In this document: piece after piece, positions 43,483 to 49,702 of the stretch
Numbering within the stretch: the stretch's first letter is position 1
How the letters are laid out: the number at the start of each line of letters is the position of its first letter
Source: Clostridium sp.
GTDB lineage: Bacteria > Bacillota > Clostridia > Clostridiales > Clostridiaceae
Direction: 5' to 3'
DNA: 56,474 nucleotides
NCBI GenBank assembly: GCA_022767515.1
Contig: JALENK010000066.1
Coordinates: forward strand, 1-56,474
Program-made: the position numbers and the translations under genes
The notes under the pieces: model-generated
Seen by the model: the letters and a program-made list of their open reading frames with translations, nothing else
What the model was told of the DNA's origin: nothing
Database searches by the model: none

Positions 43483-44499
43483 ATGGATAAGAAAGTGATA
43501 TTAACAGGTGATAGACCTACAGGAAAATTGCATATCGGACATTATGTAGGTTCTTTAAGAAATAGAGTTGAGTTGCAAAATTCAGGATTATATGAAAGCT
43601 TTATAATGATAGCTGACCAACAGGCATTAACAGATAATGCTAGAAATCCTGAAAAAATAAGAAATAGTTTAATTCAAGTAGCCTTGGATTACCTTTCTGT
43701 TGGAATCGATCCGACTAAATCAACTATATTTGTACAATCACAAATTCCAGAACTTCATGAACTAACAATGCAATATTTAAATTTAGTTACAGTTTCTAGG
43801 TTATATCGTAACCCAACTGTAAAAGAAGAAATAAAGCAAAAAGAATTTAATAATAGCATTCCAGCTGGATTTTTTATATATCCAGTAAGCCAAGCTGCTG
43901 ATATTACAGCTTTTAAGGCAGAGATAGTTCCAGTTGGTGATGATCAATTACCAATGATAGAACAGGCTAGAGAAATAGTTAGAACATTTAATTCACTTTA
44001 TGGTGAGGTATTAGTAGAACCAAAAGCAGTATTGCCACCAAAGGGATCAGGAAGACTTCCAGGTACTGATGGAAAGGCTAAGATGAGTAAATCTATAGGT
44101 AATTGTATTTACTTATCAGATGATGCAGATACTGTAAGAAAAAAGGTAATGTCTATGTACACAGATCCAAATCATATAAGAGTTGAAGATCCAGGTCAAG
44201 TTGAAGGCAATACAGTATTTACTTATCTAGATGCTTTCTGTAAGGAAAAGGATGTTTTAGAAGAAATGAAGGAACATTATACTCGTGGTGGTCTTGGAGA
44301 TGTTAAGGTTAAGAAGTATTTAAATGAAGTACTTCAAGCAGAACTTGAGCCAATTAGAAAAAGAAGAGCAGAATATGAGAGTGATATTGATGAGATATAT
44401 AATATCTTAAAGAAGGGTAGTGATAAGGCAAGAGAAATAGCAGCAGCCACACTTAAAGAAGTTAGAGAAGTTATAGGACTTGAATATTTTAATAGGTAG
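43483..44499 (+). CDS. trpS: Tryptophanyl-tRNA synthetase
   Basis: 338 residues, class I synthetase. [12 protein letters not shown] is the HIGH motif and [11 protein letters not shown] the KMSKS loop; [23 protein letters not shown] binds tryptophan, and [15 protein letters not shown] lies near the C terminus. Charges tRNA-Trp. GGGGGG precedes the start. No T-box leader is visible in the short upstream gap. Confidence 0.97.
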
Positions 44500-44528
44500 G
44501 AAGTAACAATTGTTACTTCCATTTTTTT
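44499..44528 (+). terminator. Rho-independent terminator after trpS
   Basis: Perfect stem GGAAGTAAC/GTTACTTCC around AATT (44499-44520), followed by ATTTTTTT. The left arm includes the trpS stop codon's last base. Confidence 0.93.
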
Positions 44529-44603: not shown

Positions 44604-44650
44604 AATAGTATATAGTTAATAAAATAGTAGTGAGGAGTAGTTGTTGGTAT

Positions 44651-45190
44651 ATGAATATAAGAACAAGATTATGTACAAAACAGGACAATATTGATGAGAT
44701 AAACGAAGAAGAAAAAATAAATATGGCCACTATTTTATTAGATAAGTTCGATTTTGCAAGAGAAATAATAACACAAGATGAAGCTGCAATGTTAATTGAA
44801 AGTAGTATATATACGTGTTTTTTTGATGGGGTTAATTCTTATCTTCCAATAAGATATGATATGCTTCATAAAATACCAATAAGTGCTAAGAAGTTTAGAA
44901 ATAAATTGATTACAAAAGAAGAATTTTGGTCTGAGGATATAAAATATCAAAAATTATTGATAAATATTAAGTTAGATGGTAAAAACATATTTATACTTAA
45001 TATAGTAAAAAAAATAGAGCAGTACGTTTATTTGGAGAGCTATCAGAATGAAGTTGAAAAGCTAAAATTAAATGGTTTAATTGAAGATGAAAATGAAGAG
45101 AAGAACAATGAGAATAATCAAGGTTCTGAGAATGATGAAATAGTTACATCAAGTTCGGGAATTGTAGGATATGGTTTAGACTTAATATGA
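44651..45190 (+). CDS. Unknown acidic protein coupled to a glycosyltransferase-like protein
   Basis: About 179 residues from ATG 44651; the GAGGAG at 44632-44637 is 13 bases away, so the start is uncertain, with GTG 44630 overlapping that site. An alpha/beta N-terminal part up to residue 130 (IITQDEAAMLIESSIYTCFF) is followed by a Glu/Asn-rich spacer and the end SSSGIVGYGLDLI. No secretion signal. The stop overlaps the next start by four bases (ATGA), so the two proteins are made together and may form a complex. No family recognised. Confidence 0.65.
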   Translation: MNIRTRLCTKQDNIDEINEEEKINMATILLDKFDFAREIITQDEAAMLIESSIYTCFFDGVNSYLPIRYDMLHKIPISAKKFRNKLITKEEFWSEDIKYQKLLINIKLDGKNIFILNIVKKIEQYVYLESYQNEVEKLKLNGLIEDENEEKNNENNQGSENDEIVTSSSGIVGYGLDLI

Positions 45191-46026
45191 TTGAAGCATT
45201 TCATTCATTATGGACTAAACCTTATTTAATTAGTAATTTAACTTCAAAATATGAAATGAAAGATTATGAACTATTAGTAATGATACTTTCAGCATTAAAT
45301 TGGCGGAAAAAAAACGGTAGGCTAAGGTTAATTACAGATAGTATAGGATTCGAGTATATAAGGAGCTTAGAATTAGAATTTTTGTGGGATAATAATATAA
45401 GTTGTTTTTTAGATAAGGTACCAGAAAAAATAAACCCTAAATATTATTGGGCAGCTGGAAAGCTTTATGCATTATCAAGTGTACAAGCACCGATTGTTAT
45501 GCTAGATATGGATTTGATTGTATGGAACAGACTAAATTCTGATATATGGGATAAGGATGTTGTGGTGATTCATGAGGAAGAAATTATAGATGGTATTTAT
45601 CCTGATAAGGAATATTTTAAAAAAAATGGATATATATTCAATTCTGATTGGAATTGGAAGGTTAAGCCAGTAAATACAGCATTTCTATATATTTCAAATA
45701 ATGAATTTAAACAGTATTATGTTTCAAAGGCAATAGATTTTATGATTAATAATTATGAGGCAGAGGATAGAATAAAGTATATGGTTTTTGCTGAACAGAG
45801 ACTGCTAGCGATGTGTGCAGAATATAAAAAAAAGTCTATTAATAAATTGTATAATTTTTCTGAGTTAAATAAGCAGAAGGATTTTACACATATTTGGGGA
45901 GAAAAGAAAAATCTTAATAAGCAAAGTGAATTTTTTTGTAAAAAGTGCCTAGAAAGGATAATTAATGATTTTCCATATATGCTAAATAAATATTTAATAA
46001 AAAAATTATATAGAAAATATTTCTAA
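45187..46026 (+). CDS. GT-A-type glycosyltransferase-like protein (DUF6734-like)
   Basis: 279 residues. APIVMLDMDLIVWNRLN has the strand and DxD motif expected for a nucleotide-sugar/metal site in GT-A folds, and the surrounding FNSDWNWKVKPVNTAFLYIS resembles the following substrate region. Overall it resembles the DUF6734 family of glycosyltransferase-like proteins, whose reactions are unknown. No membrane segment. Its start is coupled to the previous gene by an ATGA overlap, which suggests that the unknown protein is its partner or acceptor. Confidence 0.7.
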   Translation: MIEAFHSLWTKPYLISNLTSKYEMKDYELLVMILSALNWRKKNGRLRLITDSIGFEYIRSLELEFLWDNNISCFLDKVPEKINPKYYWAAGKLYALSSVQAPIVMLDMDLIVWNRLNSDIWDKDVVVIHEEEIIDGIYPDKEYFKKNGYIFNSDWNWKVKPVNTAFLYISNNEFKQYYVSKAIDFMINNYEAEDRIKYMVFAEQRLLAMCAEYKKKSINKLYNFSELNKQKDFTHIWGEKKNLNKQSEFFCKKCLERIINDFPYMLNKYLIKKLYRKYF

Positions 46027-46087
46027 AAATATATTTTTTATCATTTTATGTGTTAATATATAAGTATTAAGGTATGAGGAGTTAATG

Positions 46088-47866
46088 ATGGAAGAATTAT
46101 ACAAAGAAATAATAGATGAAAGTACTATAGGGTGTATATGGGGAAATTTCAATAATGATAAGTTTTATGTATGCGGAATTAATAATCCTATTAAAGAACT
46201 ATTAGGTAATTGTAAGTATGAAAATGTTGAAATATCTGAATTGCTTCAAATTGATAATGATAATTTGTATAATATACTTAATAATCATGAAGAGGAAATT
46301 GAAATTTGTGAGCTTATTCCAAGATTTGGGGCATATTACTATATAGTGATAAATAGGCTTTTAGATAATTATTTTGCACTTTGGTTTACCTATAAAAATG
46401 AGTTTAACAAGTGGTCTAAAGATGTGCTTAAGTATTCAAAAATTGATATATATATGAAGGATAGTTTAGGAAGATGTATATTTTTGAATGGGGAAAAAGG
46501 CGAAAAATATCAAAAGTTTAATACATCTCCCCTACTTAAGAATGATGAGAGCTATACTGAATGCTTAAAGGTAGTTGATAATAAGCTATTTGCAAATACA
46601 TCTTATAGATCATCAATACCTAATTTTGAGGTAGGCTCATTAATAGATATAAGTGAAGAGAAAAAGCTTGATGATAATACAGCAATTCTTGGATTTAGAT
46701 ACAAATTACTTGAAAAATTATTAGATTATGTTCCTGATATGATTTTATGTTCTGATAATAGTGGTAATATTATATATATGAATTCTACTTTAACTTATTT
46801 GATCGGCAATAATAGAAATAAATTAAGTGGAGCTAAAGCTAGAACAGTTTATTCTGCTTTGTTTGAGGATGAAAGTAGAGCAGAGCATTTATTAAAATTA
46901 GATTCATCTGTTATAAAGAGTAAAAATAGTATTATTACAGCAAGGTATATAGATGATTCACCGTATATGTTTATTGATGGCAATTATTATTTGATTGAAA
47001 AAGTTCCTTTTTTTAATTGTTCTAATTATTCAGAAGGAGTTTTAACTACATTTAGAAATATTTCAGATTATATTTATGAAAGAAAGGAATTAGAAAGACT
47101 TAGTATAGATTTTTTAAAGAAATTTTCTGATAAGATTAGATTTCCGTTAGGTAACTATTTTGCTGCATTACAAATGGTTCAAGCTTTAGATAAGGATTTT
47201 AGTGAAAAATATGATAGATATTTGTCTATCGCAAGAAAAAATGGAATGAGACTACTTAAGCTTATCAATAATATAGTTGATTTATCTTTGATTGAAAAGA
47301 AAGAATTAGTTGTAACATATAATACAGAAGATATTGTGGAATATATCAAATTATTAATAGACACATCTAAAGCATATTTTGATATGAAGAAAATAGAGCT
47401 AAGTTTTACGACTAATATTGATGAATGTGTATTTTCTTTTGATAAGTTTAAGGTTTCAAGAATATTACTTAATCTTTTATCTAATTCTATTAAATTTAAC
47501 ACAGAAGGTGGACATGTTAAGGTAGAAATATATTATAGGAAATCTGCAATAGATATTTCTGTAACTGATGATGGAATAGGTATAGATAAGGACGATTTTG
47601 AAAATATTTTTAGGAAGTTTAAACAGATAGGAAATAGATTTACAAAAGTATGTGAAGGTCCAAGTATAGGTCTGTCTTTAGCGATGGAATATGCTAAAAT
47701 TCATGGAGGTAATATTAAGGTTGATAGTGAAAAAGGAAGATTTACAAAGTTCACCTTGGTTCTGCCTGTAAAGTTTATTAAAGATACTTATGATAGCGAT
47801 ATGATAAACCATTATGGTGATATTAATAGTGAAGTAGAAATAGCATTCTCGGATTTATATATGTAA
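46088..47866 (+). CDS. Soluble PAS histidine kinase lacking the phospho-accepting His
   Basis: 592 residues from ATG 46088, six bases after GAGGAG; an ATG at 46085 is possible. No membrane segment. N-terminal sensor-like region, PAS domain about 210-325 (LLDYVPDMILCSDNSGNIIY), then dimerisation helices where the H-box reads FLKKFSDKIRFPLGNYFAAL; the invariant His of SHELRTPL is Asp348. The ATPase domain keeps the N-box LLNLLSNSIKF (Asn466), G1 TDDGIGID (Asp494) and F-box FRKFKQ; the G2 box is GPSIGL with Ser for the second Gly. It could bind ATP but cannot phosphorylate itself on the usual site. The next gene has the opposite defect. Confidence 0.88.
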   Translation: MEELYKEIIDESTIGCIWGNFNNDKFYVCGINNPIKELLGNCKYENVEISELLQIDNDNLYNILNNHEEEIEICELIPRFGAYYYIVINRLLDNYFALWFTYKNEFNKWSKDVLKYSKIDIYMKDSLGRCIFLNGEKGEKYQKFNTSPLLKNDESYTECLKVVDNKLFANTSYRSSIPNFEVGSLIDISEEKKLDDNTAILGFRYKLLEKLLDYVPDMILCSDNSGNIIYMNSTLTYLIGNNRNKLSGAKARTVYSALFEDESRAEHLLKLDSSVIKSKNSIITARYIDDSPYMFIDGNYYLIEKVPFFNCSNYSEGVLTTFRNISDYIYERKELERLSIDFLKKFSDKIRFPLGNYFAALQMVQALDKDFSEKYDRYLSIARKNGMRLLKLINNIVDLSLIEKKELVVTYNTEDIVEYIKLLIDTSKAYFDMKKIELSFTTNIDECVFSFDKFKVSRILLNLLSNSIKFNTEGGHVKVEIYYRKSAIDISVTDDGIGIDKDDFENIFRKFKQIGNRFTKVCEGPSIGLSLAMEYAKIHGGNIKVDSEKGRFTKFTLVLPVKFIKDTYDSDMINHYGDINSEVEIAFSDLYM

Positions 47867-47885
47867 AGTTTAGGAGAGAAAAGAG

Positions 47886-49655
47886 ATGAAAAAAGAATTA
47901 TATAATAATTTACTAAGATGCATGCCTCTTCCGTGCATAATTGGGAAAATAGAAGATAAAGATATAGAAATTATATATGTAAATAATAAGTTTTATGAAA
48001 AAGCAGATAAAGTAGATTATATAAATTCTAAGTTTTCAGAACTATTACAGGAATATGATAAAAAAGAATTTATTTCTGCTTTAAATAAGTGTAATGAAAT
48101 TAAAAAAGAAATAGAATGCTTTGTCTTTGTTCCTATACTTTTTAATTTTTATAATATAAAAATTAAAAAGCTTGATGAAAGCTTGTATATGCTTACATTT
48201 TATGATTATATAAAGGTTGAAAAAAGTATAATGCATACTATATTGCATCAAGAAAAAACTATGGTTTATATTGAAGATAAATATAATAGATTAATATATT
48301 ATAATGATGTAGCAGAAAGCTTTTATTCAAAGCAATATAATATTCTAATAAATAGGAAGTATATAGGCAGTTCAATATATGATGTTTTGGGGAATAATAC
48401 CTCTCAAAAAATATTAGATGATAATTATAGTGTTATTTCTGGTAGAAGAAAAACTACATCTTCTATAAGAGAGATTAATGGAATATCACTTATAAATTAT
48501 GTTTTTCCCTTTAATGTAAATGGACGCTTGGAGGGAGTAATAGTTGTTGAATATAACATAGATGATTCTACCAATATTAGTTCGCTTAGAATATCAAAGG
48601 AGTTAATGTTTGAGCAGCTTATTGACACTCTTCCATATGGTATTTTCTATATTGATTCAAATTATAAATTTAAGTATTGTAATGAATCTATGTGTAAAAT
48701 TTTACATATTACTAAGGATGAAATAATGGATAAAAAAAGCGATACAACGTTTAGGGAAAATTCTGTCTTAAATTTACTATCATTATATAATGAGGATGTG
48801 TTAGTTAATAGAAAAACAGCAGTTTATACTGAAAATATTAGTGATAAATGTATTCAGATTACAAAGGTACCTTTTTATGATGAATATTTAGAACTAGCAG
48901 GAATCTGTGGAATAATTAGAAATGTTACTAAAACAAGTAAGATTAAAGAGGAAACAAGGCAGTTAAGTTTGCAATTTTACTCTAACTTAATGCATGAATT
49001 TATGACTCCAATTAATTTAATATTTTCTTTTATACAGTTAATGGAAGGAAATTTTGAAAAAGAAAAAGAAAGTCAATATTATGATAAGTATATAAAGTAT
49101 TTTGATGTTATCAAAAATAGCACTTTATTATTATTTAGTATGATAAATAATATTATTCTTGCTACAGAGATTGATACAAACATTATTAGTTATTCTCCTC
49201 AAAATCAAGATATAGTGGCATTTACTGAAAGAATTTTAAATAATATATTTAAATACAATAGTAGTATACAAAATATGATTTTTGATACAAATGAAGAGGA
49301 ACATATTATGGCGTTTGATTCTTCTATGATGGAAATGGTAATTTTAAATGGAATGAATTATGTAATAAAACATTTAAAAGTTCATGATGATTTTATTATT
49401 AATCTAGATATTGATAAAGATTGGGTTTCTTTAATTTTTGAAAATATATATTTTGATGAAAAGAAGATAGAATATGAAACTATAAAAAAAACTATCGAAA
49501 AATATATAAATGCTAACAAAAGTTTGGAATGTAATAGTATAAATTTATTTGTTACTGTGAAGCTTATTGGATTTCATAATGGAAAAATTAAGATAAAAAA
49601 AGATGGTTATAATAAAATAAGTGTTGTATATATGTTACCAAATAAAAAAATATAA
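47886..49655 (+). CDS. Soluble PAS histidine-kinase-like protein with His but degenerate ATPase domain
   Basis: 589 residues, same architecture as the gene before it. PAS domain about 245-350 (LIDTLPYGIFYIDSNYKFKY). The H-box FYSNLMHEFMTPINLIFSFI keeps the His (His370) and the following Pro. The ATPase domain is degenerate: the N-box reads ILNGMNYVIKH with Tyr492 where the catalytic Asn should be, the G1 box is ENIYFDEK without DxGxG, and the G2 box is CNSINL instead of GxGxGL, though KLIGFHNGKIKI shows the fold is kept. It can receive but probably not make phosphate. 19 bases after its partner; GGAGAG ribosome site. No response regulator is near. Confidence 0.88.
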   Translation: MKKELYNNLLRCMPLPCIIGKIEDKDIEIIYVNNKFYEKADKVDYINSKFSELLQEYDKKEFISALNKCNEIKKEIECFVFVPILFNFYNIKIKKLDESLYMLTFYDYIKVEKSIMHTILHQEKTMVYIEDKYNRLIYYNDVAESFYSKQYNILINRKYIGSSIYDVLGNNTSQKILDDNYSVISGRRKTTSSIREINGISLINYVFPFNVNGRLEGVIVVEYNIDDSTNISSLRISKELMFEQLIDTLPYGIFYIDSNYKFKYCNESMCKILHITKDEIMDKKSDTTFRENSVLNLLSLYNEDVLVNRKTAVYTENISDKCIQITKVPFYDEYLELAGICGIIRNVTKTSKIKEETRQLSLQFYSNLMHEFMTPINLIFSFIQLMEGNFEKEKESQYYDKYIKYFDVIKNSTLLLFSMINNIILATEIDTNIISYSPQNQDIVAFTERILNNIFKYNSSIQNMIFDTNEEEHIMAFDSSMMEMVILNGMNYVIKHLKVHDDFIINLDIDKDWVSLIFENIYFDEKKIEYETIKKTIEKYINANKSLECNSINLFVTVKLIGFHNGKIKIKKDGYNKISVVYMLPNKKI

Positions 49656-49661
49656 GTAAGA

Positions 49662-49702
49662 ATTAAAAGGACTAAATGCAATTTGCAATTAGTCCTTTTA
49701 AT
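49662..49702. terminator. Bidirectional terminator between the kinase pair and the MarR gene
   Basis: Perfect 14-base stem (49662-49675 with 49689-49702) with an inner TGCA/TGCA pair; A/T-rich flanks on both sides serve convergent genes. Confidence 0.8.

What the first reader, a model, noticed from the sequence alone, without database searches (positions are those of the whole stretch)
46088..49655. Adjacent histidine kinases with opposite defects: a possible two-protein split kinase
Two consecutive genes, 19 bases apart, share one architecture (sensor region, PAS, dimerisation helices, HATPase, no membrane span). In the first, the phospho-accepting His is Asp348 (FSDKIRFPL) while N, G1 and F boxes remain. 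In the second, His370 is present (LMHEFMTPI) but the N-box Asn is Tyr492, DxGxG is absent and G2 reads CNSINL. Neither can autophosphorylate alone, but a heterodimer could do it in trans: the first supplies ATP, the second the His. CheA3/CheA4 of Rhodobacter is a known precedent for divided labour in another class. No response regulator is near, so the output is open. The weak G2 box of the first protein is a caution.
Basis: partly seen in the sequence, partly recalled or inferred. Interest (0 to 1): 0.9.

Follow-up and report, generated by a model that had tools for sequence, protein, structure and literature searches.

The report
Two neighbouring half-dead sensor kinases
Two neighbouring sensor-kinase genes in an unnamed bacterium each look broken in the part that the other has kept, which suggests one kinase shared between two proteins, perhaps feeding the spore switch Spo0A; this is inferred from sequence and still needs a test-tube check.

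Summary
P1 (46085-47866) has lost the phospho-His and its two catalytic neighbours (H/E/T became D349/K350/F353) but keeps the ATP site, apart from one G2 glycine. P2 (47886-49655) keeps H370/E371/T374 but has lost N, G1 and G2. Over 70 columns conserved in 55 relatives the losses alternate in blocks: P2 keeps helix alpha-1 and the start of the ATPase domain, P1 keeps alpha-2 and the ATP core (runs z = -4.2; 0 of 172 intact pairs as extreme; a stricter shift test gives only 5 of 69). P2's sensor half is better conserved than in the intact G046 pair, the only other tandem pair found (2 of 225 genomes). P2 keeps most partner-choice residues of one verified clostridial Spo0A kinase, P1 does not; no response regulator lies on this contig, and Spo0A is in the genome.

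Best explanation (0.47): a split HisKA kinase, P1 binding ATP, P2 sensing and accepting phosphate, acting on Spo0A. Rivals: pseudokinase or phosphatase regulators; decay. Against: no close relative shares the state, P2 is AT-drifted, and the nearest solved kinase (HK853) works in cis, as I recall. New variant of split kinases.

The parts
46085..47866 (+). P1: first kinase gene, 593 aa, proposed ATP-binding subunit (acceptor site dead)
46076..46081 (+). GAGGAG, ribosome-binding-like site before P1
   Evidence: read directly, sequence printed
47126..47146 (+). P1 H box S348-P354 with D349, K350, F353 in place of H, E, T
47219..47302 (+). P1 DHp helix alpha-2 region (379-406), kept: 7 of 9 conserved columns (P2 keeps 3)
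47459..47767 (+). P1 ATP-binding core (459-561), kept: 30 of 37 conserved columns; G2 middle Gly is S527
   Evidence: PF02518 E 3.3e-22; block pLDDT 81-93 except 57-61 over residues 511-530
47834..47863 (+). P1 C-terminal tail VEIAFSDLYM, counterpart of the IEFSDIY tail of intact relatives (G046a has one, P2 and G046b do not)
47867..47885 (+). 19-base spacer AGTTTAGGAGAGAAAAGAG with AGGAG
47886..49655 (+). P2: second kinase gene, 589 aa, proposed sensor/phospho-acceptor subunit (ATP site dead)
47886..48602 (+). P2 N-terminal sensor region (1-239), scores higher than the intact G046 proteins against five relatives outside the two tandem pairs
48990..49010 (+). P2 H box M369-P375 with H370, E371, T374 intact
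49014..49040 (+). P2 partner-specificity residues (H+7 to H+15): N-L-S-F-Q-L
49203..49334 (+). P2 DHp-CA linker and start of CA (440-483), kept: 12 of 13 conserved columns (P1 keeps 6)
49335..49640 (+). P2 former ATP core (484-585): 11 of 37 conserved columns kept; Y492, N520, E525, K527, C549, S551, N553
   Evidence: fold still predicted
44630..45190 (+). orf186, no Pfam family; possibly the same transcription unit
   Evidence: terminator-like site at 44499-44520 before it
45187..46026 (+). DUF6734 protein; possibly the same transcription unit
49665..49699 (.). AAAAGGACTAA / TTAGTCCTTTT hairpin between the convergent P2 and MarR genes
   Evidence: read directly from the sequence printed; not listed by the scan, whose loop limit is 8

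Best explanation
P1 and P2 are the two subunits of a split HisKA-type histidine kinase that arose from a tandem pair of complete orphan kinases by reciprocal loss. P2 senses (N-terminal PAS-like regions), offers His370 and docks the response regulator; P1 binds ATP and phosphorylates P2-His370 in trans inside a P1:P2 heterodimer. The phosphate most likely goes to Spo0A. Shown here: the reciprocal defects, the block-wise pattern of conservation, the orphan status, Spo0A-type specificity residues in P2 and their loss in P1, the presence of Spo0A. Inferred: heterodimerisation, trans geometry, ATP binding by P1 despite S527, phosphotransfer, Spo0A as target.
For: Catalytic positions lost: P1 3/3 DHp and 1/10 CA; P2 0/3 and 9/10. 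Columns conserved in at least 80% of 55 relatives: alpha-1 kept P1 4/11, P2 9/11; alpha-2 7/9, 3/9; linker and start of CA 6/13, 12/13; ATP core 30/37, 11/37 (blocks drawn after seeing the data). Block-free runs test z = -4.2, permutation p = 2e-4; 0 of 172 intact pairs as extreme, 1 of 1432 at the 60% threshold. P2's N-terminal region and PAS3 score above both intact G046 proteins against five relatives outside the pairs (29.8 against 16.4 and 13.0 bits; 38.1 against 15.7 and 9.7); P1's score lowest (8.0; 8.4). P2 specificity residues NLSFQL share 4 of 6 with verified Spo0A kinase CA_C0903 (NISAQL) and 3 of 6 with CA_C0323 (NVSAQV); P1 has GNAAQM, 2 of 6 with each. Orphan pair, Spo0A present. 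Made mutants of EnvZ with the same two kinds of defect complement in vitro. Adjacent genes, each with an SD-like site.
Against: No second genome with the same defects: searches of 68 genus, 206 family and 225 order genomes (each scoring only part of the first-look candidates per genome) showed one other tandem pair, intact in both genes. P1's nearest solved relative is HK853, a cis-phosphorylating kinase as I recall; a cis pair would fail, as ArcB mutants do. P1 lacks the middle G2 glycine. P2 has the most AT-driven composition of 31 window ORFs (FYMINK 48.4, GARP 7.8), a mark of relaxed constraint. A two-region (DHp against CA) test was not significant (p 0.15 and 0.28), column-wise losses are independent overall (table 23/24/12/11), the circular-shift control gives 5 of 69, and single intact relatives set against P2 or P1 reach z -3.8 and -2.4 (80%) or -3.6 and -3.3 (60%, where P1/P2 itself has -3.2). 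P2's residues also share 3 of 6 with the phosphorelay kinase KinA (TAGFQL) and 2 of 6 with CA_C3319 (SVGLQL). A pseudokinase can keep its whole ATP site without using it (DivL).
Confidence: 0.47

Rival explanations
1. Two pseudokinase regulators, not one kinase. Each pairs with, or competes against, an intact kinase or Spo0A. The obvious partner is the 290-aa kinase core on contig C18, which has no sensor domain of its own and a similar specificity class. P2, with its HExxT motif, may act as a Spo0A~P phosphatase or a phosphate shuttle; P1 as an ATP-dependent allosteric partner, as in DivL or RetS.
For: The C18 core is intact and carries NVSLQS with no receiver domain on its contig (the gene lies at the contig's end, so a neighbour could be unseen). 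Candidate clostridial orphan kinases include some that act as phosphatases and reduce sporulation (PMC11210211 passages). DivL has Tyr for His, keeps all other motifs and works without kinase activity (PMC4211667 passages). A cousin in G202 has Tyr for His with an otherwise kept ATPase domain. P1 and P2 models match the RetS kinase region well (TMt up to 0.81 and 0.72).
Against: Does not by itself predict that the blocks kept by P1 and P2 are complementary or that the two faulty genes are neighbours. P1 has lost most regulator-docking residues, which speaks against a DivL-like role in binding a response regulator.
Confidence: 0.28
2. Both genes are decaying remnants of a tandem kinase pair in a shrinking genome; the reciprocal look is chance.
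For: 2.17-Mb assembly (88.75% complete), among the smaller of 68 in its genus; P2 strongly AT-drifted; both on long branches (P2 4.35, P1 2.47), though intact G046b is as long (2.46); the two-region test was not significant. Reciprocity of two random single-domain losses is not rare.
Against: Both frames are open over about 590 codons; a random frame of the P2 ATPase stretch's base make-up would stay open for its 149 codons with chance about 1e-8 (this excludes old, not recent, loss). P1 keeps as many at-least-90% CA columns as intact G046b (27/35 each). P2's sensor scores above that of the intact G046 proteins, and its losses avoid alpha-1 and the start of CA (21 of 24 columns kept against 14 of 46 elsewhere, counted with blocks chosen afterwards).
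Confidence: 0.17
3. P2 is a Spo0B- or ChpT-like phosphotransferase (a kinase whose ATPase domain has gone) fed by a receiver domain, and P1 is unrelated to that reaction.
For: P2 keeps the acceptor His and a predicted CA fold without nucleotide motifs. No Spo0B-family match reaches the cut-off in this genome, so the post could be vacant. P2 shares 3 of 6 specificity residues with KinA.
Against: P2 keeps a long sensor half, which the 192- and 195-residue Spo0B constructs of PMC6136694 have no room for. N and S at H+7 and H+11 are those of CA_C0903 and CA_C0323, not of the phosphorelay kinases or Spo0B in that table. Own Spo0A reads as NEFIDYD, as in C. acetobutylicum, for which the table gives Spo0F and Spo0B as not encoded (my reading of the positions).
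Confidence: 0.06

Closest known systems
CheA3/CheA4 split kinase of Rhodobacter sphaeroides (PMC3591291, passages seen)
   Same: Neither protein autophosphorylates alone; one gives ATP binding, the other the phosphorylatable His.
   Different: CheA class; the split there is by absent domains (CheA4 lacks P1, CheA3 lacks P3 and P4). Here both HisKA proteins keep the domain plan and differ by residue losses in reciprocal blocks. Activity is shown there, not here.
Hik36/Hik43 (PilL-N/PilL-C) of Synechocystis (PMC7656254, passages seen)
   Same: A kinase divided over two genes; two-hybrid contact shown.
   Different: CheA homologue, domain split, genes far apart in the genome.
Engineered EnvZ G2* + H243A heterodimer (PMC4734776, passages seen; Yang and Inouye 1991 seen only as its reference)
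   Same: The same kinds of defect, one in the ATP site and one at the His; the heterodimer autophosphorylates in trans.
   Different: Made in the laboratory from one gene; the ArcB mutants treated alike are used there to confirm cis (intramolecular) autophosphorylation.
Clostridial orphan Spo0A kinases CA_C0903, CA_C0323; adjacent-numbered pair CPR1953/CPR1954 (PMC6136694 section 7 and passages; PMC11210211, PMC11053440 passages)
   Same: Orphan kinases; specificity residues close to those of P2 and its relatives; in C. perfringens null mutants of either of two kinases are impaired.
   Different: No reciprocal catalytic defects are reported in the passages seen; by the title of PMC11053440, overexpressing either CPR gene without the other sufficed, so they do not behave as a split kinase.
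DivL and RetS (PMC4211667, PMC12189002, passages seen)
   Same: Kinase-fold proteins that act on other signalling proteins rather than as ordinary kinases.
   Different: One odd partner meeting an intact kinase, not two reciprocally faulty neighbours.
ChrS pseudokinase with HrrS, Corynebacterium glutamicum (PMC9491836, passages seen)
   Same: A kinase with broken CA working through a paralogue.
   Different: Laboratory-evolved frameshift; its His was not needed; partner intact.

Membership tests
HisKA-type sensor histidine kinase family (PAS-HisKA-HATPase_c) | PAS, HisKA and HATPase_c domains in order | tested here: inconclusive
   P1: PF02518 3.3e-22, PAS_9 3.6e-6, PF00512 8.1e-5 (under its cut-off, at it); P2: PAS families down to 8.1e-12, PF00512 4.1e-4 (under its cut-off), no PF02518. 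P2's CA is recognised by alignment and model only. Homology is clear for both, Pfam membership of P2's CA is not.
HisKA-type sensor histidine kinase family (PAS-HisKA-HATPase_c) | Complete set of catalytic motifs in one polypeptide | tested here: not met
   P1 lacks H/E/T; P2 lacks N2, G1, G2
Split histidine kinase | ATP-binding and phospho-acceptor functions on different proteins, neither complete | tested here: met
   By sequence only:
Split histidine kinase | Phosphorylation only when both proteins are mixed | not testable with these tools
   needs purified proteins
Split histidine kinase | The two parts form a complex | not testable with these tools
   the structure tool takes single chains; no complex was predicted
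Split histidine kinase | Pair conserved with its defects across genomes | tested here: not met
   The only other tandem pair found, G046, is intact; no close relative was available, so this is a weak test
Clostridial orphan Spo0A kinase | No cognate response regulator gene nearby | tested here: met
   0 of 20 receiver-domain matches on contig C15
Clostridial orphan Spo0A kinase | Specificity residues like CA_C0903 / CA_C0323 | tested here: inconclusive
   P2 NLSFQL: 4 of 6 with NISAQL, 3 of 6 with NVSAQV, but also 3 of 6 with KinA TAGFQL; P1 GNAAQM 2 of 6
Clostridial orphan Spo0A kinase | Phosphorylates Spo0A | not testable with these tools
   Spo0A is present
DivL-type pseudokinase (P1) | Non-His residue at the acceptor with otherwise intact H, N, G1, F, G2 boxes | tested here: not met
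   E and T of the H box and one G2 glycine are lost too, and the residue is Asp, not Tyr or Ala
Spo0B phosphotransferase (P2) | Match to the SPOB_a family | tested here: not met
   In the search of the own genome with PF14689 the only places found were on C18 and C53, both under the cut-off

The most novel reading that the evidence does not exclude
A naturally evolved, obligately heterodimeric HisKA histidine kinase in which two full-length paralogues have parcelled out one catalytic cycle residue block by residue block (P2: sensor, alpha-1 with His, regulator docking, start of CA; P1: alpha-2 and ATP core), one step beyond an intact tandem pair such as that of G046. It would make spore entry an AND gate between two proteins.
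Probability: 0.38. Interest if true: 0.85.

Novelty: new variant of a known kind. Interest (0 to 1): 0.6.

Why it matters
The split kinases that I found described are CheA-like and divided by loss of whole domains. A HisKA pair split by reciprocal residue losses would be the natural counterpart of the EnvZ mutant-complementation experiment, would show how a homodimeric kinase can become an obligate heterodimer after duplication, and offers a direct test: two purified proteins, ATP and Spo0A. Split bifunctional kinases are predicted to be able to give ultrasensitive or bistable output (PMC3591291 passages), which would suit a sporulation decision.

Tried and rejected
Same-species relatives to test whether the two defects persist: genus (68 genomes), family (206) and order (225) searches gave no close relative (per genome only the best 6 to 19 first-look candidates were scored, and the match lists were cut), and the one genome-contig scan gave only two distant kinases (records of the own genome may be left out there). 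The metagenome collection was capped at 0 and not tried. No dN/dS could be computed.

P1 and P2 as recent duplicates of each other: rejected by an AU test (p 0.027), with long-branch caution. P1 with G046a: 96/78, not starred, and flagged as two long branches meeting. P2 with G046b: neither shown nor rejected (p 0.478); the free tree puts P2 with G202 (84/84). G046a with G046b as sisters fits as well as the free tree (p 0.505), so two separate tandem duplications, one in each lineage, are not excluded. The four-protein clade test did not finish. All.

A plain DHp-against-CA conservation test did not support complementarity (p 0.15 and 0.28); the finer block pattern was seen only later, and then tested without blocks. 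That order is told because it makes the second test less than fully independent.

Structure: two AlphaFold2 jobs with shallow alignments (14 rows, mean pLDDT 63.4 and 59.0). They show DHp hairpins and a CA fold in both, but the alignments hold intact kinases, so a kept fold in P2 is weak evidence. Cis or trans could not be decided. Hairpin length from the His column to the conserved N is 47 in P1, the shortest of 58 rows, and 52 in P2; not interpretable without a dimer structure.

The upstream genes as a conserved cassette: orf186 found only in the own genome and, weakly, in G034 (2 of 204); dropped.

Rows dropped: of 111 phmmer hits of P1 (88 of P2), 70 unique cores passed an H-box pattern and length filter; one of the 70 was a second copy of P2, taken out from then on (for the counts). 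Eleven hits without the pattern are listed (five are P1 itself or pieces of it, one is G202, one has an intact His that the pattern missed, four are fragments or distant). The H column is therefore conserved in the reference set by construction, and the E, T and P columns nearly so. Far kinases were left out of the 55-row set. The control pairs are only those with at least 12 exclusive columns and at least 4 on each side.
Full report
What is there. Two genes on the plus strand, 46085-47866 (P1, 593 aa) and 47886-49655 (P2, 589 aa), lie 19 bases apart, each behind a purine-rich SD-like stretch. Both align to the same plan: an N-terminal sensor half, a DHp hairpin and a C-terminal ATPase (CA) domain. 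Pfam sees one PAS domain in each, next to the DHp; that the region before it is PAS-like is my reading of the predicted strands and helices. A terminator-like site closes trpS at 44499-44520; the scan found no other between genes up to 49655, only one inside P1 at 46852-46885, so orf186, the DUF6734 gene, P1 and P2 may form one unit. The window lies in a 2.17-Mb assembly of 113 contigs, 88.75% complete, unnamed; Clostridium-like by its gene content and kin (my inference).

The defects. Against 55 relatives, P1 has D349, K350 and F353 where H, E and T stand in 55, 53 and 54 of 55, and keeps 9 of 10 ATP-site positions (S527 for a glycine found in 55 of 55). P2 keeps H370, E371 and T374 and has lost 9 of 10 ATP-site positions. 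Of the 55 relatives plus G202, 9 of 56 differ anywhere in these 13 positions, none in more than three. In the own genome 13 HisKA places were found; P1 is the only one without His and P2 the only one without the second N-box Asn. Four of the 11 others depart in G1, so a weak G1 alone means little. PF02518 finds 19 places in the own genome, P1's among them and P2's not. The H column of the reference set is conserved by construction because rows were chosen with an H-box pattern.

Complementarity beyond the motifs. I listed the 70 columns conserved in at least 80% of the 55 relatives. P1 keeps 47 and P2 keeps 35. The columns lost by only one of the two alternate in long blocks: alpha-1 (kept P1 4, P2 9 of 11), alpha-2 (7, 3 of 9), linker and start of CA (6, 12 of 13), ATP core (30, 11 of 37). 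The blocks were drawn after the fact, so I tested the order of exclusive losses without blocks: 6 runs where 17 are expected, z = -4.2, p = 2e-4; thresholds 60, 70 and 90% give p 0.0016, 0.0024 and 0.0004. Of intact pairs with at least 12 exclusive columns, 0 of 172 (80%) and 1 of 1432 (60%) are as extreme. Against: a circular-shift control that keeps each protein's own clustering gives 5 of 69 shifts as negative; column-wise the losses are simply independent (23 kept by both, 24 by P1 only, 12 by P2 only, 11 by neither); P2 or P1 set against single intact relatives reaches z -3.8 and -2.4 at 80%, and at 60% -3.6 and -3.3, as extreme as P1 against P2 there (-3.2), though the means are near zero (-0.2 to -0.8); and a coarse DHp-against-CA test made earlier was not significant. 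So the pattern is there, but part of its strength comes from P2's ATP core being lost as a block.

P2 is not simply decaying. Scored against a profile of five relatives outside the two tandem pairs (two of them from G027), P2's N-terminal region gets 29.8 bits and its PAS3 38.1, more than the intact G046b (16.4, 15.7) and G046a (13.0, 9.7); P1 is lowest (8.0, 8.4). Yet P2 has the highest FYMINK (48.4%) and lowest GARP (7.8%) share of 31 long ORFs in the window, a sign of AT-driven drift.

Origin. The N-terminal profile A1 finds this kinase family (E under 1e-40) in 5 other genomes of the 225 searched in the order, all in the same genus; only the window's genome and G046 carry it as a tandem pair (2 of 225; 2 of 206 in the family). 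G027 has two copies with genes between. The G046 pair (L069 7547-9370 and 9383-11146, 12 bases apart) is intact in both genes. G046a shares with P1 an IEFSDIY-like C-terminal tail, which P2 and G046b both lack. Trees: P1 with G046a 96/78, P2 with G046b not rejected (p 0.478), P1 with P2 rejected (p 0.027); but G046a with G046b is not rejected either (p 0.505), and the branches are long. I take an old tandem pair of whole kinases with later reciprocal loss as the likelier course, from gene order and the tails; two separate duplications are not excluded. A cousin in G202 has Tyr in place of His with an otherwise kept ATPase domain (G1 Asp to Asn), so His loss has happened elsewhere in the wider family.

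Output. No receiver domain lies on this contig (0 of 20 matches). Of the 13 HisKA proteins, P1, P2 and a 290-aa kinase core on contig C18 are the only ones whose contig bears no receiver domain; the C18 gene lies at its contig's end. Spo0A is present. PMC6136694 (section 7 read whole, other passages seen) gives specificity residues of C. acetobutylicum sporulation kinases: CA_C0903 NISAQL, CA_C0323 NVSAQV, CA_C3319 SVGLQL, and of B. subtilis KinA TAGFQL. At the spacing H+7, 8, 11, 12, 14, 15 (which I fitted to the printed residues) P2 has NLSFQL (4, 3, 2 and 3 of 6 in common with these), the 56 relatives (G202 and the C18 core included) mostly N[VIL]S[SAT]Q[LM] (N in 55, S in 42, Q in 53), the C18 core NVSLQS, and P1 GNAAQM; the other ten own kinases do not show the N-x-S-x-Q pattern (nine computed, the C66 kinase read from the alignment). 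The own Spo0A reads N-E-F-I-D-Y-D at the positions that I take to give NEFIDYD in C. acetobutylicum (sequence). That paper also names orphan status plus a PAS domain as the signature of candidate sporulation kinases. So P2 looks like the regulator-facing partner and P1 does not; Spo0A is the best guess for the target, not a shown one.

Mechanism and its weak step. EnvZ mutants with these two kinds of defect autophosphorylate as heterodimers, that is in trans; the same mix of ArcB mutants was used to confirm that ArcB works in cis (PMC4734776 passages). Whether P1 and P2 form a trans pair is therefore the crux. Handedness of the DHp hairpin is believed to decide it (PMC11371814 passages). P1's nearest solved chains are HK853 (named), which I recall as cis. 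The AlphaFold2 models are single chains from shallow alignments and cannot decide; they do show a CA fold in both, with P1's ATP core at pLDDT 81-93 outside residues 511-530. Foldseek puts P1 and P2 next to ordinary kinases and the RetS kinase region.

What is known. Split kinases: CheA3/CheA4 and Hik36/Hik43, both CheA-like and split by domains. PMC3591291 counts 1556 of 42417 HisKA proteins without a HATPase match and says that some could be split kinases; P2 would fall in that class by Pfam. My phrase search for a heterodimeric histidine kinase found no paper (0 hits for four phrases), and 'split histidine kinase' found 13, of which I read passages of two. 'Obligate heterodimer' with histidine kinase gave four; I read passages of one, on two phytochromes that both autophosphorylate. 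Most subscription papers are not in that library, so this does not prove absence.

Verdict. Observation confirmed; split-kinase reading plausible at 0.47; new variant of a known kind; the decisive test is a mixing experiment. Mends made on checking: the family was found in 5 other genomes, not 6; the profile held two G027 copies and is not of single-copy genes only; the rival tree results, the runs test against single relatives, the shared residues with KinA and the G1 departures in other own kinases were added. For these I lowered the main odds from 0.5 to 0.47, the novel case from 0.4 to 0.38 and interest from 0.62 to 0.6.

Noticed in passing
L102 8377-9924 (G202): A related single kinase has Tyr in place of the phospho-His (NLSYEFMTP) with N, F and G2 boxes kept and G1 Asp changed to Asn: a DivL-like state in a family otherwise intact in my sample.
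   Followed up: partly
L074 206-1078 (own contig C18): A 290-aa intact kinase core without any sensor domain found by Pfam, of a specificity class like P2's (NVSLQS) and with an IEFSDIY-like tail; no receiver domain on its contig. It could be a partner of P1 or P2.
   Followed up: partly
L069 7547-11146 (G046): Intact tandem pair of the same kinase family, 12 bases apart; a possible picture of the ancestral state of P1/P2 and a good control pair for experiments.
   Followed up: yes
L070 3872-5710 and 8246-10105 (G027): Two near copies of the same kinase with genes in between, both with intact motifs.
   Followed up: partly
C-termini of relatives, e.g. L071 near 5633, L073 near 9591: A conserved C-terminal tail ending in IEFSDIY follows the ATPase domain in many relatives of this kinase group; P1 keeps it as VEIAFSDLYM. 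Its role is unknown to me.
   Followed up: no
window 44630-45190 and 45187-46026: An orphan ORF of 186 aa (match in 2 of 204 family genomes, the second weak) overlaps a DUF6734 gene directly upstream of the pair.
   Followed up: partly
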